From assembly GCF_025766255.1 (NCBI RefSeq), contig NW_026516704.1, forward strand, positions 62,001 through 126,000: 64,000 nt of DNA. The letters are read 5' to 3'. The stretch comes from Zychaea mexicana. Its lineage: Eukaryota > Mucoromycota > Mucoromycetes > Mucorales > Lichtheimiaceae. The position numbers were made by a program, and so were the translations under genes. Below are positions 4,403-33,322 of the stretch, in pieces. Below the pieces are notes generated by a model. The model did no database searches, was not told the origin of the DNA, and saw only the letters and a list, made by a program, of their open reading frames with translations. Numbering within the stretch: position 1 is the stretch's first letter; the number at the start of each line of letters is the position of its first letter.

Positions 4403-5632
4403 ATGACAACATTTGCATCTGATTGGCGTTTCAAAAACTATTCTGATTGGCACGAAAATTTGGTTCCAAATGGCAAGAAGACGGCAAATAGACTATACGA
4501 CGAATATCACTCTGATTTGGTCAAGATAAAGGCGTACTCGGGCAGTCCTCATACCATCAAGGGTTTTGTTGGCCGATTATTGAATGAAAAGGTAGTTAGT
4601 GAACAAAAGTATTGGAAAGCTATTGATTTTTCTTGTGTTGTTGTAGGAAAAAAACTATGATCAAGAGCCAGTCAAGACAACTACCATTTACAAAGACAGC
4701 ATTGTGGGGGGCCACAACAATACTCTGATTCACACGCATGACCAAGGTCAATCTTCAGGTAAGAATTTCGTACTTTATTTAATGATTGATTATTAACATT
4801 GATTTTTTGATTCTTTCACAGGCAAATCCGACGGCAATAGTGATGATCAGTCGTACCACACTCAGAAAGATGGTAAGACAAACGTATTTCTATTTTATTG
4901 TTAGATATTATCAATATATTTATGTTTTTCTTTTTGATTGTTCATAGATGCCACCAGTCAAGCTACCCCTGATGTGCGTCGTCCTCCTCTCAATTCAGCC
5001 AACTACAATACCACAAGCAACTCCGGTCCCTCTAATAGCTACGACGACGAACTTGACTATGAAGCCACTCCAAACACCATTGATACCCATCCTGATGCCG
5101 ACGATGTCTGTCCCTCTGATACACTTCTGCTCATTTCGCCCCCAGTCTCATCCTTTGACGAATCCACAGCCACGTCCACCTCATAATTGTCATTATCATT
5201 ACAAGCACCACATGGAGCTCCGTTTATCGTGGATCGTGTAGACATCTCTGAAAGGTTTTATCGTTACAGCAATATGTCTTTGATTTTGTGAAAACCAACA
5301 ACTTGACAGTAGAATCTGACTCTTATCTTATCCTTTCGATGTCATCAATTCTTCTGCTGCAAAACAACAATCGACTTAACCATGCCATGATTCCCTTTTT
5401 TGGAGACAAACTCTACAGCAAAATCTGCAAGCACAACCTTGGCGAATGGAACATGACTCTCAAATTCCCTGGAAATGTCTTGCTGGAATCTATCATCATT
5501 GCACAGAACCTGTATGACGAAACCACTGATCGAATCAATGCGTGTGCTTCACTACTTATCCTGGCAAGCACCATTGATGATCCTATCGACAAAAGGCTAC
5601 TGGTCTCGGGCGTCCTACTATTAGTTGTCTAA
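4403..5632 (+). CDS. unknown spliced gene with degraded 3' extension
   Basis: Not recognised. Four exons fit in phase: 4403-4591, 4647-4758, 4822-4872 and 4948-5186, all with GT...AG introns of 50-75 bp. The N-terminal 63 residues are charged and Trp-rich (SDWRFKNYSDWHENL). The middle is hydrophilic, and exon 4 is Asp/Ser/Pro-rich and ends at a TAA (5184-5186). The same frame stays protein-like past this TAA (PHGAPFIVDRVDISERF) to about 5285. A one-base frame change then leads into a helical, Leu-rich segment ending at 5632. I infer that the ancestral protein included this C-terminal domain and that the TAA and the frameshift make the 3' part a pseudogene. It sits just left of the Rep/transposase module, but nothing links them functionally. 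Confidence 0.45.
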
Positions 5633-5816
5633 CCAATTATAATCTACTAGCTGTAATATAGATAATAAAATTGCTATGACCGGTATAACCATCAGTGGCC
5701 GAAATAATTATTGATTTACAATAAAAATAATAAAAATTGAATTTTTTTATTTATATTGGTAGCCTCCCACGAGAAAAAAAAGAGCGATTGTTTAAAGTAC
5801 ATAACAATAAATAAAA

Positions 5817-7306
5817 ATGAACACAACACAACACACTGAACAACTCGATATTGAAACTAAAAATTTAATTGATAATAAATGGACTTTTCTTGATAAATCT
5901 TGGCCTGAAATGCAACATAGATTTAATCATAGAACAGCTATTAAAGATATGAAGAATAATACAATAGATGATATAAAGGATGTATTACTTCATAGATTTG
6001 GATTTATACCTGTATTTTATTTTCTTACAGTTTTATATGGAAATGTTGAATATCCAGGGCCATACTGCGAGATTGAAAAAGGACTTGCATTATTATATCA
6101 TATGGTATCAGGTGTATCAGGAAAGGATATGCATACTGTTATGCCATATGCAACATTTTATGATTTGTATAAGCGGTTCTGGATTACTAACTATAATGAA
6201 TTGAATAAAAAGGTAAAACAAGATTTAGATAGTATGTTCTCATCACCACGTATTCGCATTCTATCAGCAATAATAAACAATCCAGATGGTTTTAAGAATA
6301 TTACACTATTTATTGATGGACATGATAGTAAAATAAAGTATTATAAACCAAATGAGTCACATTCACAGTTATATTCATATAAATTAAAAGGGCCAGCTGT
6401 ACGTACACAAGTTATACAGGATATGAATGAAATAATTACACATGTTTCAGTATCTAAAAAATGTGCTATCAGAAATGATGGTACTATGTTTATTAATATG
6501 AAACTATATAAAAAAATAAGTGAGGCAGATTGTTTAGGAATGGATGGTGGATATAACTTATTTATACAAAAGTTTAAAGATAATGCGACAGATGCTGGAT
6601 ATAGTTTTTATGACCGTAATTTTTTACATCCCATAAGAAAAGAACCAGGACAAAAGTTAACAATCAATGAGACATACTTTAATAACAAGTTTGGATCATT
6701 TCGTTCCACAATAGAAGCACAGTTTTCTATGTTAGGCTCTAAATTTGAACGATTTAATAATAATCGTGCAGCATTGCAAATATCTGATATAAGATATTAT
6801 AATATTCAGTTTCGTGTTGCTTGTACTCTTACTAATATATGGCGATTTGTAAATAAGTATAATATAGAGGTAGAACCACATCATAAATTATGGTATGGAA
6901 AAGATTTTGAATTCCCAAGTAAGAAAAACAAACTTGACTTAGTATTTTCAAATGAGCAAAAAGTAAATACTGAATATAACGAAATGGTTGACATGCAGCA
7001 GAAATTTCTACAGCTTAACATTAATCAATCAATAGATATGGCTATAGATAGTGAGGACGAAACTGAAAATAATACATCTAAACGCAAGAGAAAAAATCAA
7101 AGAGAACAGAGAAATATAGCACATAGTAATTCATATGAAATTGAGAAGATTGTAGGACATGTGTATACTGATACAGTAATAAGTACATATTTGAGGTTAA
7201 GTGGGTTGGATATAGTGTAAAGGATAATAGTTGGTTAACAGTTGATAAGTTTAATTCCCGGGAAATGCTACATGAATATATGGCCATATATGGTCTTCAG
7301 CTCTAA
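5817..7306 (+). pseudogene. DDE transposase (IS5/Harbinger-like DDE_Tnp_4 type) with C-terminal chromodomain, frameshifted
   Basis: The open frame 5817-7220 encodes 467 aa. A helix-turn-helix-like segment (about 88-121) is followed by a DDE core: FIDGHDSKI (Asp167), MDGGYN (Asp243) and RSTIEAQF (Glu300). This spacing fits the IS5/PIF-Harbinger family, which cuts and pastes DNA in the nucleus. A basic KRKRK stretch at 422-426 may be a nuclear signal. From residue 440 (YEIEKIVGHVY) the sequence starts like a chromodomain. The remainder (YIFEVKWVGYSVKDNSW) is in another frame from 7172 and ends at a TAA at 7304-7306. A single missing base near 7172 explains the break. Chromodomains bind methylated histone tails and are best known on chromovirus integrases, so one on this transposase type is unusual. 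Confidence 0.8.
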
Positions 7307-7704
7307 ATTAATTTCTTACTTATTTGCTTATTAAAAAATTTCATATTGAAACTGGCCGCATCAACTTTGTGTTTACTGGCCCAATTATATTTATGTTTTA
7401 TGTATTCATCAGTTATACTTGTACTTATATTAGTATCTGTTGATTTATTTTTGACGTTAGTTTCTTTTGTTATATCTATATTATCTATTATAGCCTGTTT
7501 TATATCCTTATGCTTTTCAAAATATTCTTTTGGCTGTATTTCTTCTACTATTTGCTTGTTTCTCCGTTTATTTTTAATGTGTCTTTTTTTCCTTTTACGT
7601 TTTGGTATATTATTTGGTATGTTGCAGTCACTGCTTTTCTCTGATTCAGATGTACTTACATCTATGTATTTATGTTGTCTATATCTTCTGGTGGGTTTTC
7701 CCAA
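7303..7704 (-). CDS. small basic protein of unknown function
   Basis: Open frame of 133 aa, Lys/Arg-rich in the middle (RKRKKRHIKNKRR, about residues 36-48) and otherwise hydrophilic. Not recognised. It lies downstream of the Rep gene on the same strand, overlaps the small ORF 7662-7937 by 43 bases in another frame, and abuts the end of the chromodomain frame tail to tail. The overlap could mean a spliced or frameshifted single product. A nucleic-acid-binding role is suggested only by the charge. Confidence 0.4.
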   Translation of the reverse strand: MGKPTRRYRQHKYIDVSTSESEKSSDCNIPNNIPKRKRKKRHIKNKRRNKQIVEEIQPKEYFEKHKDIKQAIIDNIDITKETNVKNKSTDTNISTSITDEYIKHKYNWASKHKVDAASFNMKFFNKQISKKLI

Positions 7705-7937
7705 GCAGTAGTATCATTTACAACATCATCACATTTTATATTATTAAACACATCTTCCCAATGCCTATAATCTACTGATGATGGTACCTTTATAGTTGAC
7801 CATCCTCTATTATTTTGTTGAGGTGGATTATATTGTTTATTGTTCTGTGTATTATTACTATTATGTTTTTCTTCTTGTTCCTTCATATATTCTTCTATGT
7901 GAGCTAATTCTTGTAGTTCCTCTACTGTTTTATCCAT
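7662..7937 (-). CDS. small acidic/Asn-Gln-rich protein of unknown function
   Basis: Open frame of 91 aa starting MDKTVEELQELAHIEEYM, predicted helical, with an Asn/Gln-rich centre and an acidic end. Not recognised. It begins 69 bases after the Rep stop on the same strand and overlaps the basic ORF 7303-7704. Cotranscription with Rep is plausible from the spacing but not shown. Confidence 0.4.
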   Translation of the reverse strand: MDKTVEELQELAHIEEYMKEQEEKHNSNNTQNNKQYNPPQQNNRGWSTIKVPSSVDYRHWEDVFNNIKCDDVVNDTTAWENPPEDIDNINT

Positions 7938-8006
7938 CGGTGTATATTTGTTAATATCATCCTGACCACTATTATGTGCATAACGGATAAATGTATGCTG
8001 ATCTTA

Positions 8007-9413
8007 TTATTTGTTTTCGAATTCACCTTTGTATAAGTCCTCATACAGATCCATGTTTTCATAATACATGAATTTATTTTCATAATCCTTCACCTTCATT
8101 GTGTATGGATTCCATATTATATGACCTTTACGGTTCTTATCAACATAGATAATATATAAACGATTGAGCGTTGGCTCTAACTCATATACTGATTTGTTTT
8201 TGTATAACATGTGCGGCATATAGTTACTATTCAGTATTATTGGCATATTTTTCTTTTTAGTTATTGACTTTGTGAATTTGCCATTAAGTTTTAACCGTGT
8301 TCCTTCTAACATTTGGTTTAAAAATGTTAATTTGAAATCAGAACCTGTTTCTTCATTATACATAAAATCATAATCATCATCCTTATAATCTGACCAATCA
8401 TTTTCTTTATTCATTAGATATGCTCGATGGCCACCTTGTTCTAATACATCAATGTTATATGTCTTACCTACATTTGATGGACCTACAATCCAGTATTGTG
8501 GTATCTTATTTTTACCACCAAACATTGTTTCAATCCTAAACATAGACCACATATGTAATTTATTTCCAGGGTTATTTTCCATATCTGCATCATGAAAGTA
8601 AGAATTTAAATTTGATTTTACAGTATCATATTTCCATAGTAATTCTGGATATATTTCGGTTGCCTTCCGCATATTAAGCTGCTTCGTAATTAATTGATAT
8701 CCAAGTAACTGCTGGTGCATTTTTCTGGTCTTAACTTCATAATTTGGATCCATATTATAACAAATATAATCTTTTCCTTTCATACAGTAGCTAATGGACT
8801 TTTGTGGATTACTACCTGGTTTAATATTTGGAGTAACACCATCGATAGTAAAGAATTTACGTGCTGTTTTTGTGTCGAACCGCTCATTCATTTGTATCTA
8901 TATATGAACATGTTTCTCACCAGTTTCTGGTGTAATTTCATCACATGCAATTGCCTTTTCAATTCGATAACCAATACGTTCATGTTTTATAAACCATTCC
9001 ATGATTTGTTCTTTTGTTAAATGGAAGTCCTTACAAATATATGTGAACAGGCCTTTAGTGTTTTGGAATCGGAATTCTTTGCCGCCCTGTGAGGAATCTG
9101 CACCAGAGGTGTTACCCTCTAACATTGCATCGGAAAATTGAGGATTTGAGGATTTGAGGAATTTTGCAAAAGCCCTAATCCGTCCCATTATTGCAGTACG
9201 GTTCTCGTCCCTTACTTCCTTTGTTATGTTAGCCTTTTTGAGGTCCTTTTCGAGTTCGACCCTCAGTTGGTCAGCAATTGTTTTTTCACTAACATCTTGA
9301 TGATGTTCAGTAAGATGCTTTGCTCTTTCTATTAAGAGCGTCAATGTTATTCCTAAAATAGGAATAAATTCAGCCATAATGGCAATAAATGTGAGGAGGT
9401 TCATTTGGTCCAT
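8007..9413 (-). pseudogene. rep: CRESS-DNA-type Rep (HUH endonuclease + SF3 helicase) with one in-frame stop
   Basis: One reading frame runs from an ATG at 9413 to a stop at 8007, broken by a single TAG at 8898-8900. The first part has a hydrophobic, then charged helical N-terminus and rolling-circle motif I (LFTY, residues 122-125). Motif II (HVHI, 168-171) lies directly before the TAG. After it come motif III with the nicking Tyr (YCMK), a Walker A box (GPSNVGKT), an acidic Walker-B-like segment (YDFMYNEET) and helicase motif C (PIILNSNY). Such Reps nick and rejoin origin DNA and unwind it during rolling-circle replication in small circular DNA viruses and plasmids. Copies are known as insertions in fungal genomes. 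Read-through or a recent nonsense mutation could both explain the TAG. I saw no stem-loop origin nearby. Confidence 0.85.
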
Positions 9414-9675
9414 GTTGTGTTTTCGTTGGGGTAGTTTTGTTAGAGTGCTAAAAAATATAACAAATATATTTTGCTTTATATTCTGTGGTGTTATTTTTAT
9501 ATTAAAAAAATTCAATTTTTATTTTTTTTCAAAAATTTAAATGTATGCATGCCAAGACATTCGTGCATGAATTATTTCAATAAAAATTAGTTTGGCTATC
9601 CTGACATATTTCAGCTAATTAGTCATCTAGGGTTACTAGACTGCATTAAAATCATCATAACCATGGCCGGTCCCC

Positions 9676-10291
9676 TTAGCATCTCTACAAGTTATCATCA
9701 TAGTTTTGCTTTACATGTATAGATGATACTTACATCTTGAAAGTTCTTTATTAGTCAAACGCAGATGTTCCTGAATTTGATCCCACTCCAACTTGTTATT
9801 GACAAGTTCTTCGATCCATTTACGTGTTTCAGCAGGGAGTTGTGAGCGAGTAGCATTAGTTATCTTGGTAGGGTCATGGTGTTGATGTTGCCAGTGATAT
9901 ACAAGTTTGATTTTGCCTGAGAATAAGTATTGAATACGGTATCGAGCACGACAATCTACTTTAATAGATAGTTTTGCAAGTCGACGTTTTTTGATGGGAG
10001 CAGGTTCAGTTGAGTCTATAGGCAGAGCAGGGGCAGCTGGAGCCAATGTTTCTCTTGAGTGATCACAAAAAAAGTGATACTACGTTCAACTGTCCGAGGA
10101 CGGCCGGCATCTGAAGCCTTGGGTACGGAGATGTACTTGTTGTTGGTGATGAAGTTGGCATGCTGCTTGGGGTTTTCTTTAACCCACTCGTCAAGTTGTT
10201 GCTGGTTGTCAAAAGTCTCTGTAACTACTTCGGTCGGGTAGGTGGGAAAGACACAGACAAGGTATCCAAGGCTATCAGATGCAGAGGCCAT
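9676..10291 (-). pseudogene. MULE/FAR1-like transposase N-terminal gene, U1 copy
   Basis: The frame from ATG 10291 (MASASDSLGYLVCVF) matches the U2 and U3 copies. A one-base shortening of an A-run near 10065 breaks the frame, and about 15 bases are missing near 10105, between GCAT repeats. Near 9738 this copy has one more T than U2/U3. With that T, the donor at the end of the exon is in phase with the following exon, which survives only in the other units. The predicted domain is a WRKY-GCM1/FAR1-type zinc finger (C...C...HxH), the usual DNA-binding head of Mutator-like transposases. The 3' part is cut off at 9676 by the neighbouring sequence. Confidence 0.6.
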
Positions 10292-10543
10292 TGTTGTAGG
10301 TGAGCAATTGACAAAACAACAAAGGTACAGTTGTGACGCGTCGCTGTGGGAACTTGAAAAAATTTTACTCAGTGATTGAAAACTTCTCTGATGTAATTTT
10401 TCTTGATGAATAATGAAACTGCCCCCAGATGGGTGCACCCCTTTTCGGGTTCCTCAAATAAGGGGATGCAGGGGATGCAGGGGCACCTTTTTCTTTCTTC
10501 TTTAAGCTACAGCATCTTTTACTTCTTTAAGCTTGTTCCGTCA

Positions 10544-11315: not shown

Positions 11316-11423
11316 AGATAGGATCTTATTCAGACATACCTTTTTGAGGTAAATTCTATAAGTATCATTATTTAATGAGAAACTAAATGTCTTTATTTTT
11401 TAAAAAAATAGTATTATTTAACT

Positions 11424-11524
11424 GATGCTATCTAATTTTATTAATTTATTAAAAAAAATGTTTACAAAAATGTCTTTTAAAATTTTAGCGATCGCCCTAT
11501 TCCCCCTTCGTATCCTGCGATTAA
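11424..11524 (+). repeat. direct repeat in front of the plasmid-like membrane ORF
   Basis: GATGCTATCTAATT (11424-11437) followed by a GC-richer block at 11484-11524 (TTTAGCGATCGCCCTATT then CCCTTCG and CCTGCGATTAA). The same two-part arrangement precedes the RNA polymerase frame at 12742-12844. In a background of mostly A and T these GC-richer blocks stand out and may be promoters or processing signals of the original mitochondrial plasmid. Confidence 0.6.
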
Positions 11525-11575
11525 CTTTAAACTTAGTTTGGGTTATTTCTAGTTATTGGTTTAAAATACTTATTT

Positions 11576-12634
11576 ATGGATATAATAGATTATTACAAAC
11601 TTAATATTCTTTATTACAGAATAATATTCTATCCATTATTAAGTTTTTTTAAACATAAGTATTACTATTCTATAGATAAAAATCATTTTAGATTTGCATC
11701 TGTATTTTTAATTCCTAATATTCTAGTTGATTCTATTCATCTTTATTTTATAGAATTTATTCACTTCTTAAATGATAATCTTTCTAACATTTTTACAGGC
11801 TCTTTAGGTTTAGTATTACTAGGTTTATTAATTTATATAAGTTCTGCCCCTAATTTATCTAATACAAATCCTTCATCAAAAAATACTTTTAATGTTAATT
11901 TTGGAGATGGAGGTGCAGCATCAAAAAATCATCCATCAAATAGTAATTCTAATAATGATAAACTAATTACTTCTCCTGGAATTGCTGCTGCGGGAATTAT
12001 TTCTAGAACAACAATAACTGCTGTAGTTAAAATTGCAAAAACAAATCCTAGAAATGGATTGTTTTTAGGTATTGTTGGTACTATTGGTGGTTTTGCTACT
12101 TATGGATTAGGTGAAATAATGAATCATAACTATGAAGAAAGAAAAAAAATGAGAGAAATGTATGGAAGAATGTATTATCACTCTATTAAAAGATCTGGTA
12201 GTCCTCCACCAGATGGAAACTTCAAGATTAATTCTCCAAATGAAAATAGTAATAATTTTGTAAAATCAATTTTAAAATTCATTAAAAATCCACAAGATGT
12301 ATTTAATTTATTAAATAAATATTTTAGAGGTAGTGATAGAAGTCCTACTCCTATTTTAATTTTATGTATTTGTCTATTTACATTTATTGGAATTCTTGGT
12401 TGTTTCTTTTTAATTATAGGTATGTTAAGTAAACTAATTAAAATTGAAGAATGAGAATATATTAAGAATAGACCTTTATTACATAAATTAGTTTGCCTTA
12501 TTATTTCATTAAGATATTGGAATAATTCTATATTATTAATAATTATGTTATTATGTCATATTAGAATTTTAGTTATTTACTATTATTTAAACGAATCATT
12601 CTGGGTTGATGATTTATATAAAAGATTATTATAA
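11576..12634 (+). pseudogene. mitochondrial-plasmid-like membrane protein ORF, U1 copy
   Basis: Very AT-rich frame from ATG 11576. It has hydrophobic segments (LGLVLLGLLIYISS at about 80-93, FLGIVGTIGGFATYGLGE, and ILCICLFTFIGILGCFFLI near 255), separated by Asn/Ser/Lys-rich stretches. An in-frame TGA at 12452-12454 is CGA in U2 and U3, so it is a mutation and not a mitochondrial Trp codon. Beyond it the frame stays homologous with two more membrane segments to 12634. I do not recognise the family. Its place before a phage-type RNA polymerase suggests an accessory ORF of a linear mitochondrial plasmid. Confidence 0.55.
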
Positions 12635-12741
12635 TTATTTTATAAAATTCTCCCCTGGTACCTTGATTTATGCCTTCTTGTGGCGGTACTGTAACTAGAG
12701 ATAATTAATCTTGAAACTAAATAAATCATTACTAAAAACTA

Positions 12742-12844
12742 GATGCTATCTAATTACTTACTTACTTTAAAATATGATGTTTACAAACTTATTCTATATT
12801 TTTAGCGATTGCCCTATTTTCCCTTCGAATACCTGCGATTTAAA
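12742..12844 (+). repeat. direct repeat in front of the RNA polymerase frame
   Basis: Second copy of the two-part motif: GATGCTATCTAATT at 12742-12755 and TTTAGCGATTGCCCTATT...CTGCGATTTAA at 12801-12844. It matches the block at 11484-11524 apart from a few substitutions and small gaps. It lies directly upstream of the polymerase reading frame. Confidence 0.6.
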
Positions 12845-12849
12845 CTCTT

Positions 12850-14716
12850 TCACAGAGCTTATTTCAAGTTACATTAGGATTAAAACACCTGATGGTTTAA
12901 TTACCAGTAATATCTAGATCAATACTCCGGATAATTTACTTTTAGCTTTATTACCTTCAGTAGTATGTATAAACAAAAACCCTTCAGAAAATAATATTTT
13001 AAATTCAACTTTAAATGATTCAAAAGATTTTTCTCTTACAAATGAAAATTCTAATGGTTATATTACTATTAAAGAAATTTTATCAAATGATACTTTATCT
13101 CTTAAAGAAAAACAATTAAATTTAGAAGAAAAATTACATTCTTTATGGTTGAAAAAACTAGAAAAAATGAGTAAGTCTAAGGATTTCTTAAATATAGATC
13201 CTAGGTTTAGAATATTTTTAAATAACTATAAGTTGTTAGAAGATGACTTAAAAATGTATTTTGAAAATGAAAAATTTATTAGAAACAAAAAATATCTTTT
13301 TATGTTTAAAGAAATAGATAAATCCTTGATGCTGTTCTTGATTTTAAGTTTGTTAATCCCCTTTATTATGAAATATGAAGATAATAAAGAACAATCAGTT
13401 GCTACTTTATTTCATAGATTAGGAAAAACTATATATAAAGAATGTTTATATCAAAAATATATTAAAGAAGTTGATGATAAATCTAAGGATATTGTAACTT
13501 TTAATTTATATTTGAAGAATTTTACAATGAATGAAGAGAATTTTATTACTATTGGTGGTACTGTTATTATTAGTTATTTGGATATGAAAAGTGATCTTTT
13601 CAATATCTTAGAACGATATGATGTTAAAAGTAAAAAAACTCATAGAGAAATTATTCCTAGTTACCAATTGAAAAAATATATTAAATATTTAGGTATGATT
13701 GATGGTCATGAATTACCTATAGTATATCCACCTATTTATTGGGAATTAAATGATAACAAAGAATTTAAGACATATAGTGGATATATTACTAATAATATTA
13801 AGAGTTTTAATCCTTTAATTAGAAGTAAAAGATTTACTGAATCAAATATTAAATTTATAAATAAAATGATATATAAAATGGTTAATTATATGTCATCTAT
13901 TGGTTTCAATATTAATCTTAAAGTATTAGATTTTCTAATGAATCTGCCACTTAATGATGATTTAGTTATGAGAACATTACATAAGGAGACAGATGAAATG
14001 AGTGAGATTATTAAAAAGAATAATAAAGAAAAAGAATTTGAAATTACATCTCATAAAAGTAAATTCTTATATAATAATTTAATTTTAACTATTGCTAAGC
14101 TTTATAGAGATGTTGAACAATTTTATTTTACTTTCTTTTTAGACTAGAGAGGAAGAGTTTATTGCCAAGGGGGTGAATTAAATCTCTAAGGTGGTGAATT
14201 AGCAAGATCATTAAAGTTATTCAAAAAAGGTTATGTATTATCTGAAAATGGATTAAATTCATTAAAGGTTTATGGAGCAAATACTTTTGGATTAAATAAA
14301 TTATCTATTACCAAAAGATTAGAATGGGTTGATCAACATTTTTCAGAAATCTTAGATTTAAATTCAGGATTATCGAGAAAAGCTGATGAACCTATGTTGT
14401 TTTTAGCTTTTTGTTTTGAGTTACAAGGTTATAATAAGGATCTATTAAACTTTATTTCTAGATTACCAATTTATTTAGATGCAACATATAATGGTGTACA
14501 ACATTTAGCTGCAATGATTTCTGATTTTGATCTAGCTAGTAAAGTTAATTTAGTTGAATCTAATATGAAAGATGATCCTAATGATCTTTATAGTTTAATG
14601 TTAAATCCTATTAATGAAGAAATTAAGAAAATAAAGGAATGTGATTTAGAGTATGCCAGATTAAAGGGCTTAGTATTAAATAGAAAGATTGTAATAAGAA
14701 GTTTAATACTGGCTGT
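12850..14716 (+). pseudogene. rpo: phage-type (mitochondrial plasmid) RNA polymerase, truncated, U1 copy
   Basis: A single frame can be followed from about 12850 to 14716 with stops at 12915 (TAG, TGG in U2/U3), 14145 (TAG in all copies) and 14187 (TAA, CAA in U3). Single-subunit polymerase landmarks appear in order: LPIVYPPIYW, the RGRVYCQGGELN block just after the 14145 stop, GGELARSL, the catalytic-Asp motif YLDATYNGVQHLAAM and the start of motif B (LNRKIVIRS). Sequence then changes to nuclear type, so the C-terminal catalytic His/Asp region is missing. Such polymerases transcribe linear mitochondrial plasmids of fungi. This copy is in nuclear-type surroundings and cannot be functional. 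Confidence 0.8.
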
Positions 14717-15220
14717 GGGTCTTGTTAGACAAGTACTTGGATGTCAACGTTATTGAGGACCTTGCAAAATACGAGCGACACTGCCGTCACCATCCGATGT
14801 CAACAATCAGCTACGCCTGAAAATCAAAAGGAGGAAAAGAACGTCTTAGCACTCGATGCAACCTTCTAAGCAACATGGTTCATCGTTTGCATACGAGAAG
14901 CCTCTGCACCAAAGTTTTCATGTCGCCCTATTGCAACGCAGATGAAAATTTGGAATCTCGTGACAGCACTGGAAACCAAAAAAATCACCTGGCTTTAGTT
15001 AAGAACTGCGATGGGGATATGACAAGTTACGTGAATGACTTTTCTATTTAATGCACAGATACTCATTCTTTCTTTTTTCAGCTTTAATGCAGTTGCTGAA
15101 AACAAAGTTCAAGCCCATCTGTTTGGCAGTCATAGATTTTGCCGGGTTAAGCACAGAGCCAAATGACATTCGTGCATTCGTCAGGTAGAGTAGACATATT
15201 ATGAGGCTATCCGTGGATAA
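14717..15220 (+). pseudogene. YARKS-motif gene fragment, U1 copy
   Basis: Protein-like frame beginning LDKYLDVNVIEDLAKYERH, then MSTISYARKSKGGKERLSTR and CTKVFVSPYCNADE in the intact U2 version. After a probable intron ending TTTTTTCAG near 15082 comes a hydrophobic strand (ICLAVIDFAGLSTEPND). U1 has TGA at 14818-14820 where U2 and U3 have CGA. The YARKS strand and the later VIDFAGL strand recall the core of serine recombinases, but the match is too weak to name. I infer it continues the three-exon gene at 10544, split by the plasmid-like insertion. Confidence 0.4.
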
Positions 15221-15693
15221 AATCAACTAATATGATACTGAAAAATAGGAAATTTACACAAATTGAAGAGATTGTGGTGGACCGCGGATTGACTTTCGAC
15301 GTATTTTCGCGACATGACCTGCTGACGAAGGAAGAGATAATCAACCGTTTCGACCGTCGCACTAGCTGTGTCAAACGTTTGGCAATTCCTCAACTTGTAC
15401 AAAAATAAAGAGAAAAGAGAGTAAAGAAGAAGAAAAAAAGAGCTCCCTTACCAAGCCTACCCCTCACCCCTCGAATTTGCTTTTACATTCGACACTTCCT
15501 TACCAAGCCTACCCCTCACCCTCGAAGTTGCTTTTACATACAACACAACGTACAGACCCTGCAGATAAGGTTGAAATCAATAATTAGCGATAAGTGCAAA
15601 TTTTATAATAAATACAAATAAGAGTATGTTTTAATGTCCTGCAAAAACAAGTTGTTTTTTCACCCTCCCGTTCGCAACAATAGCGAAGTAAAA
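15221..15693. other. non-coding stretch with CCTTACCAAGCCTACCCCTCACCC direct repeat
   Basis: Between the YARKS fragment and the Gypsy fragment. A block of about 45 bp containing ACCAAGCCTACCCCTCACC and TTGCTTTTACAT occurs twice in tandem near 15447-15540. It may be Gypsy LTR or untranslated sequence. No gene seen. The same in U2 and U3. Confidence 0.5.
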
Positions 15694-16219
15694 TTATATT
15701 CCAAAAAAAATTTGTAGACCAAGTAAGGCGTCGTTCTCTGGACTTCCTATACGATTATGTGATTCAAACATGGTGATATTCACTTTTTCGTGCAGTGCAA
15801 GTATAGTTGTAATGCTTTGTCGCCATAATCCATCGTACATTCGCTCTTTTGGAGCTTGAGACGATAAGATAGCATTCATTGCTGTATGATCTGTGTGGAC
15901 TGTAGGTTGGGCACCATGCGTATAACAATGAAAGTACCATAAAGATTGAATCACGCACATCGCCTCACGTCCAGTCACGCTATAATTCTTCTTGGCTAGT
16001 GCCAACGTTTTGCTAGCATATAGGCAACTGGTCTTGAGTTTTGACAAAACACTTCCAATAGCGACATCCGAAGCGTCACAATAGAGATCGTATGGCAAGT
16101 TAGGGCCGGGATAATATGCTAGCGTTGGAAGTTCAATGAGCCGTATTTGATATCTTGAAAGGCTGCTTCTTCTTTGTATGCCACTGCCATTCCTCGCTTT
16201 TTTGTAGTAATTTGTATAT
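15694..16219 (-). pseudogene. Ty3/Gypsy RNase H fragment, U1 copy
   Basis: Minus-strand frame with RNase H landmarks LYCDASDVAIGSVLSK (first Asp), TGREAMCVIQSLWYF (Glu) and VHTDHTAM (second Asp), the order in Ty3/Gypsy pol after reverse transcriptase. At 16219 it is cut and joined in the same frame to the MULE-like gene of U2. That fusion frame is an artefact of the tandem duplication. Integrase is absent on the 3' side. Confidence 0.75.
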
Positions 16220-16970
16220 GATAAATCTTTTCTTGCTAATCTTGACTGTTGGTTGGCAATGATATTCATGACATGATGCTGCTTCACACGTAAGGCTTCC
16301 GGGAACGGTCCTTCGCCTTCCTCGAGCTGATACCACAGGTTAGCATCTCTACAAGTTATCATCATAGTTTTGCTTTACATGTATAGATGATACTTACATC
16401 TTGAAGTTCTTTATCAGTCAAACGCAGATGTTCCTGAATTTGATCCCACTCCAACTTGTTATTAACAAGTTCTTCGATCCATTTACGTGTTTCAGCAGGG
16501 AGTTGTGAGCGAGTAGCATTGGTTATCTCGGTAGGGTCATGGTGTTGATGTTGCCAGTGATATACAAGTTTGATTTTGCCTGAGAATAAGTATTGAATAC
16601 GGTATCGAGCACGACAATTTACTTTAATAGATGGTTTTGCAAGTCGACGTTTTTTGATGGGAGCAGGTTCAGTTGAGTCTATAGGCAGAGCAGGGATAGC
16701 TGGAGCCGATGTTTCTCTTGAGTGATCACAAAAAAAAGTGATACTACGTTCAACTGTCCGAGGACGGCCGGCATTATTTCGGCGTGCATCTGAAGCCTTG
16801 GGTACGGAGATGTACTTGTTGTTGGTGATGAAGTTGGCATGCTGCTTGGGGTTTTCTTTAACCCACTCGTCAAGTTGTTGCTGGTTGTCAAAAGTCTCTG
16901 TAACTACTTCGGTCGGGTAGGTGGGAAAGACACAGACAAGGTATCCAAGGCTATCAGATGCAGAGGCCAT
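16220..16970 (-). pseudogene. MULE/FAR1-like transposase N-terminal gene, U2 copy
   Basis: Exon 1 runs from ATG 16970 to a GTAAGT donor at 16397 (191 codons). Its C...C...H-x-H finger (CRARYRIQYLFSGKIKLVYH, HWQHQHHDP) fits the WRKY-GCM1/FAR1 DNA-binding head of Mutator-like transposases. Helices follow (RKWIEELVNNKLEWDQIQEHL). The next exon near 16340-16220 reads LWYQLEEGEGPFPEALRV...ARKDLSY, as expected for the linker before a MULE core, then is cut by the Gypsy fragment. One T fewer than U1 at the end of exon 1 spoils the splice phase. No transposase core is present. Confidence 0.6.
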
Positions 16971-17222
16971 TGTTGTAGGTGAGCAATTGACAAAACAACA
17001 AAGGTATAGTTGTGACGCGTTGCTGTGGGAACTTGAAAAAATTTTACTCAGTGATTGAAAACTTCTCTGATGTAATTTTTCTTGATGAATAATGAAACTG
17101 CCCCCAGATGGGTGCACCCCTTTTCGGGTTCCTCAAATAAGGGGATGCAGGGGATGCAGGGGCACCTTTTTCTTTCTTCTTTAAGCTACAGCATCTTTTA
17201 CTTCTTTAAGCTTGTTCCGTCA

Positions 17223-17694
17223 ATGTTTGGATGCACAGACTTAAGTTTGTCCCAGGCAGCATGCTTAGCCCTTAGATTACAACAAACCAAAGAACAATGG
17301 CTTCAAGCAGTTGCCAGAATACAAGAGTTGGATATGGTGCCTGTACATGTTATGGGCGCCAATCTACTGTTTCTGTGCCTGGTGTCAACGAGGGTACAAG
17401 AGATGAATCCCTTTGTGTACATCACATATGCAGACGATAGTAAGTGTGTTTGTAGTCTCATTAATAGACCTGTGGCTGACATAAATGTATTCAGGTGACC
17501 AAATTGGTGACTCCTCATCTTCTACCCCATGCACTACATCATCGACCGTTGTTACTAAAGAAAGTATCAATGCTTCATCTTCGGCAAGTGATACAATTGC
17601 ATATCAATACAAAGGTAAAAGCAGCTTTTTTCTGTTATAGGTCTCGTGTTTTGTAACGTTTTGTGTAGTCACTGTTTCTAAACAGGAAGCCCTG
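17223..17694 (+). pseudogene. three-exon gene, U2 copy, 5' part (split by CACTA)
   Basis: Same gene as at 10544. Exons 1 and 2 are present, and the third is interrupted four bases after its splice acceptor by the CACTA element. The coding sequence resumes at 27054. Before the insertion the frame was the same as in U1. Confidence 0.7.
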
Positions 17695-17715
17695 CACTAT
17701 AGGAAAATTCTTGTA

Positions 17716-17850
17716 AGCACTAAGTAAAGTAACAAGAATTCTTGTGGATTCTTGTGAATTTAAAGTAGCGGTCACACATTCACAAGAAAATTACAAAACG
17801 TTTTGTAGAATACCAAAGCGGTCACACGTTCACAAAACATTTTTGTGGAA
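17716..17850. repeat. left subterminal repeats of CACTA copy A
   Basis: Repeats of CACAAGAA/TTCTTGTG and GCGGTCACACNTTCACAA. Such short subterminal arrays are the transposase or accessory-protein binding sites in known CACTA elements. The same array is found in copy B at about 33816-33970. Confidence 0.7.
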
Positions 17851-18082
17851 TATTCATTATATAGATTTTAAAAAATAGCTTTATTCAATTACATGATACT
17901 AGCTAAGGTTTATTAATTGATGGAATACTGGTCGAGCGTATATAGATGAAAACCACCCCTTTCTCTCTCTATATATATCACATACACTCTCGCTATATAT
18001 ATACGTGTATGTGTGTGTGTGTTTATACAATAATCAACTTTCTGATACTTTAACTTACCTTTTAATTATGTTTATTTTTGTG

Positions 18083-19032
18083 GGGGGGAGCAGCTCCGAG
18101 CCGCTTTGTAGTACGACGTCGTTTGGTAGACTGCGTGGAGGAAGGAGTAGGGGCAGGGGCAGGAAGAAAAGCAGAAGTGGAGACAGGAAGAGAAGCAGGA
18201 AGAGAAGCAGAAGAGACAGGAAGAGCAGAAGCGGAAACAGGAAGAGAGGCAGAAGAGACAGGAAGAGCAGAAGAGACAGGAGGAGAAGCAGGAAGAGAGA
18301 CAGAAGAGACAGGAAGAGCAGAAGCGGTAACAGGAAGAGAAGCAGAAGAGATAGGAAGCAGCAGGAAGAGAAGCAGGAAGAGAAGCAGAAGCCGGTTCTT
18401 GTTGTCTACCTGAGAGTTAATATATATACAATTGTGGTTGCTCTAGTGTAGTAGTTATCATACCTCAACTTGCTGGATCTGCCGTAGTTATTCCAGCATT
18501 CTTGGACGATGTGGCGAGCTGCCCACTGGTCCTGGCAGACAGCAAAATCAATTCCCTGCTTCTTTGCCAGGTTCGTGAAAAGGCTGATAGCCCAGTTGCT
18601 ATCCTTGCTTTGCAGCTTAGCAAAGTAGCAGGTCGCGCTGTTGTCAGCACGATCCCGCAATCTCTTCTCTAGAACAACCACAACACGCTCCCAGATGTGC
18701 TTGATGTCCGTCTGGGCTTTGATCAAAGCACCACCTTCAAACTGGTGGTAGCCTTGAAGGAGAAGGCGCTCGACATCATCCTTGTTAGCTTTCTTCACCA
18801 TCTTCCCCTTGGTATTTAGAGCCACTGGGTGGGGAATGAGGGAAACCGTCTCAGCAAGTTCTGCTTCATCGACAACTGGCACCTCGACTAGGGATTGCGC
18901 CGTTAGCAGTTGGTCGAGCTTCTCCAGAATGATTGCTTGATTCGTCTCTACATTGATAAGACGATGCTCCATATGAGTGAAGACTTGGAGGAAATTGAGG
19001 TTAGCGTTGGAAGGTGTTTGGTTAGTGTTCAT
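18083..19032 (-). CDS. coiled-coil accessory protein of CACTA copy A
   Basis: From ATG 19032 (MNTNQTPSNANLNF) the frame has a coiled coil (NVETNQAIILEKLDQLL, about 27-43), a linker, a basic KGKMVKKANKDD stretch and a helical Trp-containing domain (SNWAISLF...QDQWAARHIVQECWNNYG). A GTATGA donor follows SSKL near 18472 and an acceptor CTCAG lies near 18413. The next exon would enter the minisatellite and end in a basic tail (TKRRRTTKR) near 18083, though the exact phase across the repeat is unsettled. It is divergent from the transposase gene at 19186 over 150 bp. By position it is analogous to the second gene of plant CACTA elements. Homology is not claimed. Confidence 0.55.
18130..18395. repeat. 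12-bp-based purine-rich minisatellite (copy A)
   Basis: Variants of AGGAAGAGAAGC and AGGAAGAGCAGA are repeated about 20 times. On the minus strand they read as Ala-Ser-Leu-Pro repeats in the frame that ends TKRRRTTKRLGAAPP. On the plus strand they give an Arg/Ser-rich ORF. I favour the minus-strand reading as the tail of the coiled-coil gene, because that gene family otherwise ends in a Ser/Pro-rich, basic tail. Confidence 0.7.
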
Positions 19033-22941: not shown

Positions 22942-25900
22942 TTTTTATTTTTACCTCTGTTATTTCTGACTTCCATAAATAAATGATTATAGCTATCGAT
23001 CATGTAATTTCCTGACCAGTGCAAACATAGAGTATGATATATGAAGAAACATATCGGGTGTTTCGGGTGCAAATTTAGCCGCGGCGTTTCAAAAATTCTC
23101 AATTTTCGACAGCTCACGGTTTAAGTCAGTATGCACCATAGTGGAAAATCGCAGCTTTGAAGACTTGTGTAGCCCATACTTGGCCAGCAAAAGGGCTGGA
23201 TATATTTGCCCTATCAAGCCGAGGAATCTGGATATGTGCGCGGACGGATGTGTTCTTATCACTGGCAGTCAAGACAAGTGCCCAAAGTGCGAGAAGCCTC
23301 GTTATTTGGAAAACGGGAAGCCTGCACAGGTCATGAGATATATCCCTATCTCACACCTTTTTGCAAGTTTGTTTGCCACCGCTATGAGTCGCGATACTTT
23401 AAGATTTGGCAACAAGAGTGTAGGAGAAGAAGGCGTCACGACTGATATTGTTGATGGGCGTGCCTTCGAAATCTGCCGCCATTTCTTCGATGGAGAGTAT
23501 GACATTACGCTTGGCTTGTTTGTGGACGGTTTCATGCCATTCCGTCGAGGCCGTAATAATACAATATCAATGACGATTGTCCACCTTGTAGTCTTCACGC
23601 TTCCTCAATCCAAAAGGTATTCTAGCAACGTATAAAGGTTTGATTTGGCACTGATATAAACCAGATACTATATAGATACAAACTGAAGAATATGCTCCAA
23701 GTCGCCATTATCCCTGGACCATACAAGCCCAAAGACATTCATAGCTTTTTAAAGCCTTTGATGGATGATCTTCAGGTTTTGGGAACAATTGGAATGCGAG
23801 TGCGTTGTCCTGGCATTCCTGCGCCGATACCAGTAAAAGCGCATCTCATGCTTACATCTGGAGACACACCTGCTGTCACGGATCTTGCATGTCACTCAGG
23901 ACACACTTCGTACTACGGCTGCAGAGTATATGTTATCCTTGCTACAAGTTGCGTCAGTCCCAGTGGCAATGGCCGAGCCAGATATTTCGTTGGTGGAGCT
24001 CAGCTGGACCAAAGCAGAAGCAACCGCGAGTATCTTAACGGAGATACGGTAAATATCTGAACATATTGACTATGATATAGAGGAATACATGTGTTACTCA
24101 ACAAAAAAATATACTAGCGACGCGGTTTGTATGGGACACCATTAGCAGCCTTACCGACATTCCATGGTGCTACATTTTTTGGACTTGATGAGATGCATTT
24201 AATTGGCCAGAACATTGCACACCAATTGTACAGATGGATCACGGAAGCCTATGCCAATGCATAATTACCATTTGCCCTCAGTGATACCGCTATCAGACAG
24301 ATGGGTATAGCTATGTCGGAATCTGTGGCGAGTCTTCCTATAGGATTAAATGGTGCATTATCAGGTAACAGACATATGAATGTGTGCGTGTTTCTCTTTT
24401 GCATAACATATCGATATATATACTCCTTTTAGATATCTTTACCCGTTCTGTAAGTGCACATGCAGTTGACTAGATTGATTTCCTGTCACTCACTCTGCCA
24501 TCACTAGTGTTTGAGCAGTTGAACACTGTTGGATGTCAGCACATCGAGCAACTTAATAATCTGGTTATTGCGTGTGCCTTGGCTCTTTCTTGAAATATAA
24601 CCGACGAGCAGCTTATTGACATAGATAAGTAAGTTACACTCATTTGATTAACTACTTAACTTAACCAACATTTCTTTTTAGCCGCATCAATTCTTGGCAT
24701 ACGTTTCTCTCAGGTCCCTATATGCCCAATAACATGTACACCATCTGCCACCACCTTCTGCGACATGCGCTAGATATCATTTGTATGCTCGGACCTCTCA
24801 GATCGATTAGTGCACGTCCCATGGAAAGAGCCGTTGGTAAGTGATGTTTATGTGTAACTGTCTACTTTATTTTTAATGGAAACTTGCAGCTGAAGCCAAA
24901 AGACGTATACAATCAAGGAAGCTTCCAGGAGTTAATGCCTAGAATGCAAATGTCAAGACTGCCATTATCAGGCTCTTGGGCAGAGTCCTTGATTTTGAGC
25001 AATCGACGACTAGCGACGACAATAAGGCGAATGACGTGTTTTATGTTGGTTGCGATGAAAACGGGGTGAATGACTGCGATGATGAGGATGCGCCAGAATT
25101 GAGAGGGCCTCGACTGAAAAGGGACGCCAGGTTGACAGACTATAGTCATCTGAGACTTAAGGCTCATCTTAAACAATATTACAAGAGACTGCAAGCTGGC
25201 ATGGAGCGGAATGAGGGAGATAGGATGATTATAGATGGCGAAGATGATCTGATGGGGCTCGACGAAGTTGGAAACGCTCTTGAAGAAAGCATAGTTGTCG
25301 CACCAAACCTTTTTGTAGACGGCACTGTCTATGAGAGTCTAGGTGCTGGAAAAGTGTGCAGTAGGATGGCACACTATATCCGGCTCGAACTTCCAATGGA
25401 CAAACACTACCATTTCGCAAACAGGGAGCAAGAGACCATTTGGGGTGATTTCTTCGGCGACCTTCATCTTTCATTCGCGCACACATATCGAGGTTAGGAA
25501 CTTACACTGAAAGGATATTAATCACTTTTGGAGTGTTATAGGGTAGGCGTTTTTTTTAACCAAGATTGTGGTGTTTTAGGAATAACCCGCATCCTTTGCT
25601 TGGTGGAACTGAAGCGCGAAGTGAAGCTTTCTCAATGGGGTTACCCTATAGGCTCATCACGATCAAATACAAAATGATATGTCACAGAAGCCCAAAACAT
25701 CCAAAGTTTTGCAGATACGATCAAATCATCCATTTCAGAAAACGGTCTACATTATATATATCCTAGATTAGTCTCTGGCTATGTGAACCTCGGAGACATT
25801 AGAAAACTCTGAAATCCACAACTGACTACACTTCTACTGTATCTATCCATTCACCCACAAAAGCATAACGAAGGTTTGCTCAATTCCTGTTACTCATATG

Positions 25901-26018
25901 TGTTACTCTCTTTATTATTACCTTTAACACACCCCTTTCCTTTTTCAACTTTCACGCCTTCCCACCACAGAACGTATTATCTGACTCGTGCCTCTTATAT
26001 AGTTTAAAATTTTCATTA

Positions 26019-26565
26019 TCAAAGACCTAGCTCGTCGAACAGTTCATCTGTGGTCTGGAGTTTTCGTATTGTTTCCTCAGCAGAGATGCTATGTTTTTCG
26101 AAATCGTTAGTACCAGTCGAAGGTATTGTTTCTGGCGCTGAGGAATCGTCGACAGGAGAGTTTGCACCATACAAATATAGGAAGGAGGGTGAGTATACTT
26201 GAGTGGAGCCAGATCCATTGCTGCAGGTATTTGATGGCGGTTCTCTATGTATACAGTTACAAAACTTATTTACTACAGTGACAACGAATGACAGTGTGAG
26301 ATCGCTATTTACTTACCTTTGGTCGCATATAAAATGCGAAAGATCCAAATCAGAATCATAATCACCTCTCTTATATTCTTTGTTTATAGCGTCCAAAACG
26401 TCATTGCAGTGTTCTGCCAAGTTTTGGCATGGAACACCACGCGTTGCTTCGAGCAAAGCTTTTATTCTATTTGGATCGTGAAAGTTAAATAAATAAGGGA
26501 CTATGATAACGTTCTTCTTTGCACATACAATAAGCGCTCCCTGTTGTAATGTTGACGCAAAATCC
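26019..26565 (-). CDS. small two-exon gene at the right end of CACTA copy A
   Basis: Not recognised. Exon a (26565-26317) reads FASTLQQGALIVCAKKNVI, then HDPNRIKALLEATRG and KRGDYDSDLDLSHFICDQ. Exon b (26220-26019) is Ser/Thr/Glu-rich and ends ELFDELGL. The GTAAGT donor and CAG acceptor join in phase. A 5' exon may exist beyond the AG at 26566. It is convergent with the transposase gene. Conservation with copy B supports a real coding region. The function is unknown. Confidence 0.45.
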
Positions 26566-26734
26566 TATTCACGTCCAAAACTTGTTCACGGCAAACGCAA
26601 GATCGGCTGTTCGTTTCCTCAGTAGTTTTGTGCAAAGAGAACATAGCAGCAGTCAAATGAATAATAAATGTACCCAGAGCATTTCAACACAACTACTGGT
26701 TATTTAACTTAAGCTCACATCACGATAGTACTGT

Positions 26735-27053
26735 ATAATCACAAAAACATCACAAGAATCCACAAGAATCCACAAGAACCACCAAAGAAAATTGGCGACC
26801 CAGAGCAGGCAGTGACAGATGTCACAAATTTACAAGAAATCTACAAGAATCTACAAGAATGAGGCCGGCGGGGTCCAAATTCACAAGAAATCCACAAGAA
26901 TCTACAAAAACCACAAAAAAATTTGGCAACCTAGAGCAGCGTCACAAATTTACAAGAAATCCATAAGAAATCCACAAGAACCACAAGAATGAGGCCAGCA
27001 GGGGTCCAAATTCACAAGAACTTCACAAGAACCATAAGAATTTTCCTACAGTG
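26735..27053. repeat. right subterminal repeats of CACTA copy A
   Basis: More than fifteen CACAAGAA/TACAAGAA-type octamers within two diverged copies of a block of about 120 bp (each with TTGGCRACCYAGAGCAG and GAATGAGGCCRGC). They are oriented toward the terminus. The same array is in copy B at 39435-39753. Confidence 0.8.
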
Positions 27054-27323
27054 CTGGAATACTTGAAGCAAGTCATGCTGCTAAACCAACTGTCGAACGA
27101 TACCCTATTCGAGCACATCTTCTTAGTGTCAGCTCAGCAAAAATCTATCTTAGAAAAACGCTTTGGACCAGCCACAAACTCGACGAAGCAAATTGAGGGT
27201 TGGGTCAACAGCTGTAACGTATGGGGTGAACGTACATCAAGAAAGTTAGATGGCAAAAAAGTGGAAGGTCGCTGGGGGGTAATGGGTTTAAAACGAAACA
27301 GTTATTTACATATCCTCCTTTAG
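27054..27323 (+). pseudogene. three-exon gene, U2 copy, 3' part
   Basis: Resumes after the CACTA target duplication: LEYLKQVMLLNQLSNDTLFEHIFLVSAQQK. It is colinear with 11013-11282. It ends at the same hairpin next to the plasmid-like segment. Confidence 0.7.
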
Positions 27324-27654
27324 AAGGAAAGAAAACAAACATACTTCTTTCCTTCTAGATAGGATCTTATTCAGACATACCTTTTCGAGGTGGATTCTAT
27401 AAGTATCATTATTTAATGAGAAACTAAATGTCTTTATTTTTTAAAAAAATAATATTATTTAATTGATGCTATCTAATTTTATTATAATATTATTTAATTG
27501 ATGCTATCTAATTTTATTAATTTATTGAAAAAATGTTTAGAAAAATGTCTTCTAAAATTTTAGTAATCGCCCTATTCCCCCTTCGTATCCTACGATTAAC
27601 TTGAAACTTAGTTTGGGTTATTTCTAGTTATTAGTTTAAAATACTTATTTATAG

Positions 27655-28728: not shown

Positions 28729-28909
28729 TCTCCCATGATATCAATATTTATTATTATTATTTTATAAAACTCTCCCCCGGTACCTTGTGGCGGTACTGTA
28801 AGTAGAGATAATTAATCTTGAAACTAAATAAATCATTACTAAAAATTAGATGCTATCTAATTACTTACTTTAAAAATATGATGTTTACAAACTTATTCTA
28901 TATTTTTAG

Positions 28910-30816: not shown

Positions 30817-31289
30817 GGTCTTGTTAGACAAGTACTTAGATGTCAACGTTATTGAGGACCTTGCAAAATACGAGCGACACTGCCGTCACTATCCGATGTC
30901 AACAATCAGCTATGCCCGAAAATCAAAAGGAGGAAAAGAACGTCTTAGCACTCGATGCAACCTTCTAAGCAACATGGTTCATCGTTTGCGCACAAGAAGC
31001 CTGTGCACCAAAGTTTTTGTGTCGCCCTATTGCAACGCAGATGAAAATATGGAATCTTGTGACAGCACCGGAAACCAAAAAAATCACCTGGCTTTGGTTA
31101 AGAACTGCAATGGGGATATGACAAGTTATGTGAATGACTTTTCTATTCAATGCACAGATACTCATTCTTTCTTTTTTCAGCTTTAATGCAATTGCTGAAA
31201 ACAAAGTTCAAGCCCATCTGTTTGGCAGTCATAGATTTTGCCGGGTTAAGCACAGAGCCAAATGACATTCGTGCATTCGTCAGGTAGAG
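30817..31289 (+). pseudogene. YARKS-motif gene fragment, U2 copy
   Basis: Same fragment as at 14717, with the CGA codon intact (30917), so LDKYLDVNVIEDLAKYERH through SISYARKSKGG to NDFSIQ is open. The second part (ICLAVIDFAGLSTEPND) follows a TTTTTTCAG acceptor. Confidence 0.4.
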
Positions 31290-33070: not shown

Positions 33071-33322
33071 TGTTGTAGGTGAGCAATTGACAAAACAACA
33101 AAGGTACAGTTGTGACGCGTCGCTGTGGGAACTTGAAAAAATTTTACTCAGTGATTGAAAACTTCTCTGATGTAATTTTTCTTGATGAATAATGAAACTG
33201 CCCCCAGATGGGTGCACCCCTTTTCGGGTTCCTCAAATAAGGGGATGCAGGGGATGCAGGGGCATCTTTTTCTTTCTTCTTTAAGCTACAGCATCTTTTA
33301 CTTCTTTAAGCTTGTTCCGTCA

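What the first reader, a model, noticed from the sequence alone, without database searches (positions are those of the whole stretch)
5729..9523. Chromodomain DDE transposase and CRESS-type Rep combined in one inverted-repeat-bounded module
Seen directly: a DDE_Tnp_4-like transposase (Asp167, Asp243, Glu300) on plus; a Rep with HUH motifs I-III and SF3 Walker A on minus; two small ORFs; perfect 21-base inverted repeats outside the outer genes. HUH Reps replicate by rolling circle and DDE enzymes move DNA by cut and paste. One element with both would join two mobility mechanisms. Whether it is a true composite element, or a virus- or plasmid-derived Rep next to a transposon, is inference. I know of no described family with this gene set.
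Basis: partly seen in the sequence, partly recalled or inferred. Interest (0 to 1): 0.92.

Follow-up and report, generated by a model that had tools for sequence, protein, structure and literature searches.

The report
Fungal transposon carrying viral-type replication gene
A repeated 4-kilobase mobile element in a fungal genome carries both a cut-and-paste transposase and a replication protein of the kind used by small circular DNA viruses; whether the second enzyme really copies the element is open.

Summary
The unit is window 5609-9675 (4067 bp); the repeats lie 120 and 152 bp inside. Twenty other nearly full-length copies (89-98%) were found in this genome; 9 of 13 usable insertions have a 3-bp target duplication (0 of 200,000 shuffles reach nine). 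It has two genes, not four: a 494-aa DDE_Tnp_4 transposase with a C-terminal chromodomain and a ~703-aa geminivirus-type HUH-SF3 Rep, of which the 'two small ORFs' are broken pieces. Rep shows purifying selection (dN/dS 0.16-0.27). A Rep was listed beside 38 of 55 transposase loci of this family, and 0 of 27 sibling loci (46-65% identity). Six loci (five independent) join a right end to a left end across a conserved 15-nt spacer, suggesting a joined-end form. But a Rep-less sibling has one such joint, also 15 nt, so the joint cannot be credited to Rep. No circle was seen. A truffle transposon with Rep and transposase genes was published in 2011, so this is a new variant, not a new kind.

The parts
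5609..9675 (.). Whole element (family A), 4067 bp, left end GGCGTCC, right end GGTCCCC
   Evidence: Similarity between dispersed copies stops here; 3-bp TSDs abut these ends in other copies. Window copy: flanks TCG / TTA, no TSD.
5729..5749 (.).
   Evidence: similar motifs near the genes of sibling elements L045, L047, L048 (by eye)
5817..7220 (+). Transposase ORF, DDE_Tnp_4; 467 aa here, frameshifted within the C-terminal chromodomain (494 aa in open copies)
7303..7704 (-). Broken C-terminal piece of Rep ('small ORF')
   Evidence: part of the single 703-aa frame in L026
7662..7937 (-). Broken piece of Rep ('small ORF')
8007..8891 (-). Rep, SF3 helicase half (Walker A GPSNVGKT)
8898..9413 (-). 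Rep, N-terminal half with HUH endonuclease (HVHI), ended by an in-frame TAG at 8898-8900
   Evidence: HUH domain of the family matches geminivirus Rep structures
9503..9523 (.). Right arm of the subterminal 21-bp inverted repeat, 152 bp inside the right end

Best explanation
It is a PIF/Harbinger-like (IS5-group, DDE_Tnp_4) DNA transposon of a probably Mucorales fungus that carries a geminivirus-type Rep as its second gene. Shown: both genes sit inside one dispersed unit with common ends and 3-bp target duplications; the Rep sequence evolved under constraint. Inferred: the transposase cuts and inserts at the GGCGTCC / GGTCCCC ends, with the chromodomain guiding it to marked chromatin. The transposase family can also leave ends joined head to tail across 15 nt; a Rep-less sibling does so too, so this step is probably the transposase's. 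Least certain: in this lineage Rep then multiplies the joined-end form by rolling-circle replication before reintegration, and a ~1.2-kb satellite with the same ends uses the same proteins. In such a circle Rep and transposase would diverge from one intergenic region, the layout of a small ambisense CRESS replicon.
For: 54 match rows genome-wide, 20 besides the window nearly full length. TSD 9 of 13, shuffle mean 1.16, maximum 8. Convergent Rep within 9 kb of 38 of 55 family-A transposase loci (24 within 500 bp), against 0 of 27 siblings at 46-65%. Rep dN/dS 0.16-0.27 over six pairs of four frames. HUH domain matched to geminivirus and other CRESS Reps; Walker A and other SF3 residues invariant in 11 sequences. 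Head-to-tail joints with a conserved 15-nt spacer at 6 loci, 5 independent; reversed-pattern controls 0. Rep P0004 and transposase P0035 both report a longest contig of 4459 bases with source jgi. Circinella minor has relatives of both proteins.
Against: The key control went against Rep: a Rep-less sibling (C113, L045) has a head-to-tail joint of the same 15-nt length. No circle was observed. The joint does not fold better than shuffles (z 0.18 to 1.67, 5 of 5). Outer flanks of joined pairs show no TSD where readable (C303 ATT / TAT; C51 and C194). 17 of 55 family-A transposase loci lack a nearby Rep and 19 of 59 Rep loci lack a transposase. No listed copy has both frames open. The second HUH histidine is tyrosine in P0004 and in C140. 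The joint may descend from one old dimer. Viral contigs gave no confirmed relative.
Confidence: 0.45

Rival explanations
1. One composite transposon, but Rep does not replicate it. Rep is an accessory DNA-binding or nicking factor, and copies spread by cut and paste. The 15-nt joints are made by the transposase, by insertion at a fixed distance from a resident end, or inherited from an old dimer.
For: A Rep-less sibling has a joint of the same length; sibling elements spread without Rep; L047 has a small Cys/His protein gene in Rep's position; no hairpin at the joint; some 3-mer matches fit sequential insertion (C115 TGA/TGA; C51 ATT/ATT if the satellite ends in T).
Against: SF3 ATPase residues are invariant in 11 sequences and the gene is constrained, more than a mere DNA-binding role needs. 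Five independent family-A joints share spacer sequence as well as length; the sibling's spacer differs in sequence.
Confidence: 0.43
2. It is mainly an endogenous CRESS-type virus or plasmid that captured a transposase in place of a capsid gene.
For: Geminivirus-type Rep; if circular, the layout is ambisense like CRESS viruses (inference).
Against: Rep-less siblings share the subterminal motif, convergent gene order and, in L047, an apparent 3-bp TSD, so the transposon backbone looks older. No capsid gene; no confirmed relative in viral contigs.
Confidence: 0.08
3. A Rep from a virus or plasmid lies by chance next to, or was inserted into, a transposon.
For: None beyond the different origins of the two genes.
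Against: Many dispersed copies hold both genes between the same ends; TSDs flank the whole unit.
Confidence: 0.02

Closest known systems
Geminivirus-like transposon of Tuber melanosporum (Liu et al. 2011, PMC3198968; passages, section 8)
   Same: Dispersed fungal element with a geminivirus-type Rep-like ORF and transposase ORFs between inverted repeats
   Different: Two transposase ORFs of a family not stated in the section, 37-bp TIRs, no obvious TSD, frames interrupted or truncated. Here one chromodomain DDE_Tnp_4 transposase, hardly any TIR, 3-bp TSDs, some open Rep frames, a satellite and spacer joints. Sequences were not compared.
PIF/Harbinger (PHIS: PIF/Harbinger, ISL2EU, Spy, Pangu, Nuwa; Han et al. 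2015, PMC4482050, passages)
   Same: DDE_Tnp_4-type transposase, second gene, 3-bp TSD, about 4 kb
   Different: Second gene is Rep rather than a Myb/SANT protein; C-terminal chromodomain; TSDs follow no one described motif; hardly any TIR
Helitrons and Replitrons (Helitron facts from passages; Replitrons recalled)
   Same: Eukaryotic mobile elements with an HUH nuclease
   Different: There the HUH protein is the transposase; here a separate DDE transposase is present with TSDs, and the helicase is SF3
Polintons and Teratorn (passages of PMC6431247; Teratorn size from an abstract in the listing)
   Same: Replication genes joined to a DDE-type integrase or transposase
   Different: Polintons 15-25 kb and Teratorn 180 kb, with large viral gene sets; here 4 kb with a rolling-circle type Rep

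Membership tests
PIF/Harbinger (PHIS) superfamily | DDE_Tnp_4-type transposase with DDE triad | tested here: met
   Pfam above its cut-off; D167 and E300 invariant, D243 at 90% or more in 25 sequences. The fold search found no DDE core.
PIF/Harbinger (PHIS) superfamily | 3-bp target site duplication | tested here: met
   9 of 13 usable insertions
PIF/Harbinger (PHIS) superfamily | Group-specific TSD motif (such as ANT, CWG, TNA) | tested here: not met
   AAT, CTT, TGT, GAG, CTT, TAG, CAT, ATT, GAG fit no single motif
PIF/Harbinger (PHIS) superfamily | Terminal inverted repeats | tested here: inconclusive
   Terminal 7 nt agree at 5 positions; the 21-bp repeat is subterminal. A Rep-less sibling agrees at 10 of 12 terminal positions.
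PIF/Harbinger (PHIS) superfamily | Second protein with Myb/SANT domain | tested here: not met
   Second protein is Rep; no Myb domain called
PIF/Harbinger (PHIS) superfamily | Place in a tree of the superfamily | not tested
   No tree was made
Geminivirus-type CRESS Rep | HUH motifs I-III in a geminivirus-type catalytic domain | tested here: met
   (motif names recalled); Gemini_AL1 matched by 8 of 11 members at E<=0.05, best 2.3e-8, but 0.0016 and below cut-off for P0001; 1l2m E=6e-9 with the profile. P0004 has tyrosine at the second histidine.
Geminivirus-type CRESS Rep | SF3 helicase Walker A/B and motif C | tested here: met
   G316 K317 T318, E354 E355, N395 and N397 invariant in 11 sequences
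CRESS-DNA virus | Capsid gene | tested here: not met
   Two genes only
CRESS-DNA virus | Hairpin origin | tested here: inconclusive
   No hairpin better than shuffles at 5 of 5 joints; rest of the noncoding DNA not tested
CRESS-DNA virus | Circular genome | not testable with these tools
   Only indirect joints, which a Rep-less sibling also has
Geminivirus-like transposon (Tuber) | Sequence relation to the Tuber Rep and transposases | not tested
   No Tuber sequence was compared

The most novel reading that the evidence does not exclude
A eukaryotic DNA transposon that is also a rolling-circle replicon: the transposase joins the ends across a 15-nt spacer, Rep multiplies the resulting circle, the transposase reintegrates it, and a short satellite shares the system, much as subviral DNAs share a helper's Rep.
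Probability: 0.22. Interest if true: 0.88.

Novelty: new variant of a known kind. Interest (0 to 1): 0.68.

Why it matters
It is a well-delimited, multi-copy case of two mobility enzymes, a DDE transposase and a viral-type rolling-circle Rep, kept together in a 4-kb element, beside sibling elements without Rep in the same genome. That makes a natural comparison for a long-standing idea: that small DNA viruses and transposons turn into each other by swapping integration and replication modules. The fixed 15-nt head-to-tail joint, seen in two families, is a further testable product, with or without Rep.

Tried and rejected
Rejected: the 21-bp inverted repeats as ends; the two small ORFs as genes; chance neighbours. 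A hairpin at the joint was not found. Viral contigs: 21 and 23 pattern stretches, no confirmed relative of Rep or transposase. The phage collection had no transposase match; Rep was not searched there. PHROGs had none for either protein. Foldseek of the transposase model (relative P0015) gave one match at E<=0.001, a chromodomain, and no DDE core among the 50 listed. The Rep model (relative P0004) is weak: mean pLDDT 55.8, about 80 in most of the HUH region. L073 (C90) has TTTAAAATC before its left end, like the spacer, but no right end was recognised upstream in L098.

Rows dropped before the TSD count: of 21 copies, nine: L011 (right end missing), L014, L019, L020, L028 (left end missing), L025 (both), L015 and L023 (segmental duplicates of L013 and L022), L017 (same left flank as L016; its right end is a joint). 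C140 was added. The 3-mers were read by eye from the printed ends.
Full report
WHAT IS THERE. The window is G000:C242:62001-126000 of an unnamed 50.3-Mb genome in 305 contigs. The closest named transposase relative is from Circinella minor, a Mucorales fungus (78%), which also has Rep fragments at 51-84%. The host's identity is inferred from this. The segment holds a DDE_Tnp_4 ORF on plus (5817-7220) and Rep pieces on minus, and the 21-bp inverted repeats are exact.

ENDS. Searching the genome with 5700-9550 gave 54 match rows (40 of 421 candidates scored); besides the window, 20 are nearly full length at 89-98%. Similarity continues past the 21-bp repeats. Searches with the flanks put the common boundaries at about 5609 and 9675, and the printed ends of 20 other copies, where not truncated, begin near GGCGTCC and stop near GGTCCCC. 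The terminal 7 nt agree at 5 of 7 positions in inverted orientation; the longest exact inverted match between the end regions is the 21-bp repeat, 120 and 152 bp inside. Similar motifs lie near the genes of siblings L045, L047 and L048 (by eye), so the repeat is more likely a shared promoter or binding motif than an end (inference).

TARGET DUPLICATION. Of 13 usable independent insertions, nine have identical 3-mers on both sides: AAT, CTT, TGT, GAG, CTT, TAG, CAT, ATT, and GAG for the Rep-only copy C140. Four do not: the window copy, L009, L012 and L027. None of 200,000 shuffles reached nine (mean 1.16, maximum 8). The window copy's right flank is another repeat, most listed copies of which begin at 9676, while its left flank showed no part of that repeat; recombination between copies could explain the missing TSD.

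TWO GENES. In some other copies the minus-strand gene is one open frame of 696-703 aa (L012, L025, L026) and the transposase is 494 aa (L019, L028). Near full-length Rep rows without a stop: 4 of 69; full-length transposase rows without a stop: 4 of 92, all four family A (this search also lists siblings, some of them open with partial query cover). No listed copy has both. The transposase carries Pfam DDE_Tnp_4 and, in the two open copies scanned, Chromo; solved chromodomains match by sequence and, for relative P0015, by fold. No DDE structure was matched by fold. Rep P0001 has FTYI, HVHI, YCMK, GPSNVGKT and NSN stretches, which I assign from memory to motifs I-III, Walker A and motif C. The second HUH histidine is tyrosine in metagenome relative P0004 and in C140. 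A profile of 11 sequences matches geminivirus Rep domains (7vg8, 1l2m) and Vientovirus Rep (9pqf, 9pqq) at E 3e-9 to 6e-9 (titles). With single sequences Pfam Gemini_AL1 stays below its cut-off.

SELECTION. Six pairwise comparisons of four open Rep frames gave dN/dS 0.16-0.27; the two open family-A transposases gave 0.30. These are simple Nei-Gojobori estimates on copies that also decay. C140, a derivative of about 2.5 kb with the transposase deleted, has an open Rep and a TSD.

SIBLINGS. The genome holds related transposases at 46-65%. A convergent Rep was listed within 9 kb of 38 of 55 loci at 74% or more (24 within 500 bp), of the single 66% locus, and of 0 of 27 loci at 65% or less (from the capped lists; a very different Rep could be missed). 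Four sibling loci read directly have no Rep by tblastn (L045-L048). L047 is a 2.3-kb element (16 rows at 80-96% cover most of it) with an apparent ATT duplication and a small Cys/His-rich gene in Rep's position. L045 has a related gene (39%). In that family the usual order, read from match coordinates at six loci, is also transposase then this gene. These small proteins match no Pfam family and gave no BLASTP match to Rep. Rep may have replaced such a gene in one lineage (inference; no tree was made).

OTHER GENOMES. Ten Rep relatives were found, sixteen proteins with the profile, and 93 transposase relatives. Rep P0004 and transposase P0035 give the same longest-contig length (4459), both with source jgi, so they probably share a contig; the contig was not seen. 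Circinella minor has both proteins, adjacency not seen.

HEAD-TO-TAIL JOINTS. A family-A right end followed by a left end within 30 nt occurs four times, always with 15 nt between, 0 in the reversed-pattern control. Looser patterns give six left ends preceded and five right ends followed by the spacer, at the same six loci: C51, C53, C79, C115, C194, C303. C51 and C194 share flanks and count once. Spacers: TGTATTTTTAAAATT, TGAATTTTTAAAATC, TGAATTCTTAAAATT, TGAATATTTAAAATT, TGGATTTTTAAAATT (in C53 the satellite is taken to end in T). The single copies viewed do not show it, apart from TTTAAAATC before L073. One joint is A-A (C115), two are A-satellite (C51/C194, C79), two satellite-A (C53, C303). 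The satellite is about 1.2 kb; of 40 left ends fetched, 16 are of its type, 23 of A type and one (L070) unlike both. It shares ends and a Rep segment of 27 residues (67%) with A. Constant joints in several combinations are what joined-end circles or concatemers would leave.

RESULTS AGAINST A ROLE OF REP IN THE JOINT. The C113 locus (L045) of a Rep-less sibling has the same arrangement: right end CGATTTGTCCTC, then TCCAGATAACTTGCA (15 nt), then left end GGGGATAAATCG; it is the only hit of its pattern in the genome, control 0. The solo ends of that family that were viewed (L103-L106) have other flanks. So the 15-nt spacing belongs to the wider transposase family, and only the constant spacer sequence is peculiar to family A, against one sibling joint. 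Further: no hairpin; no matching outer flanks where readable (C303 ATT/TAT; C51 GAA and C194 TTA against TAT or ATT, the left ends not surely of the same copy); two inner 3-mer matches that fit sequential insertion (C115 TGA/TGA; C51 ATT/ATT if the satellite ends in T). Descent from an old dimer is not excluded.

LITERATURE. Ten searches were made. The closest precedent is Liu et al. 2011 (PMC3198968; passages, section 8). Passages were read of PMC12730594, PMC6431247, PMC6668415, PMC4482050 and PMC7928374. Nothing in these passages describes this arrangement; subscription papers and Repbase could not be searched.

VERDICT. A real composite transposon and a new variant of a known kind. A rolling-circle stage is possible and testable but unproven.

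Noticed in passing
L045 (C113), outside the window: A Rep-less sibling has a head-to-tail joint with exactly 15 nt between ends, like family A but with another spacer sequence.
   Followed up: yes
window 9676-10420: Right flank is another repeated family; most listed copies begin exactly at the element boundary, suggesting a recombined insertion site.
   Followed up: partly
window 11408-18815, 27054-35843, 39754-45006: An AT-rich block (GC about 0.23) with ORFs 11576-12454 and 13149-14147 is repeated at about 93-99%. It may be inserted organelle-plasmid DNA, but Pfam names nothing above cut-off.
   Followed up: partly
window 23139-32323 and 35838-45006: A 9.2-kb segmental duplication at 98.8%.
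   Followed up: no
L067, L050, L053: A second short element (about 1.2 kb) shares the ends and a Rep segment with the main element and has small ORFs of its own.
   Followed up: partly
L099 (C140:18200-21300); also C174: Rep-only derivative: transposase deleted, Rep open in C140, TSD GAG; second HUH histidine is tyrosine.
   Followed up: partly
L047 2997-3524, L045 5308-5799: Sibling transposons carry a small Cys/His-rich basic protein gene.
   Followed up: partly
P0005, P0006 (metagenome Rep relatives): Their C-termini hold a Cys/His-rich stretch that recalls the siblings' small protein (by eye).
   Followed up: no
C79:237017-257712 (L016, L017): Inverted duplicates with the same left flank; one has the element alone with TSD TGT, the other the element plus spacer plus a truncated satellite.
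   Followed up: partly
window 15694-16365 and 59187-59825: Retroelement remnants: RNase H of reverse transcriptase and zf-RVT.
   Followed up: no
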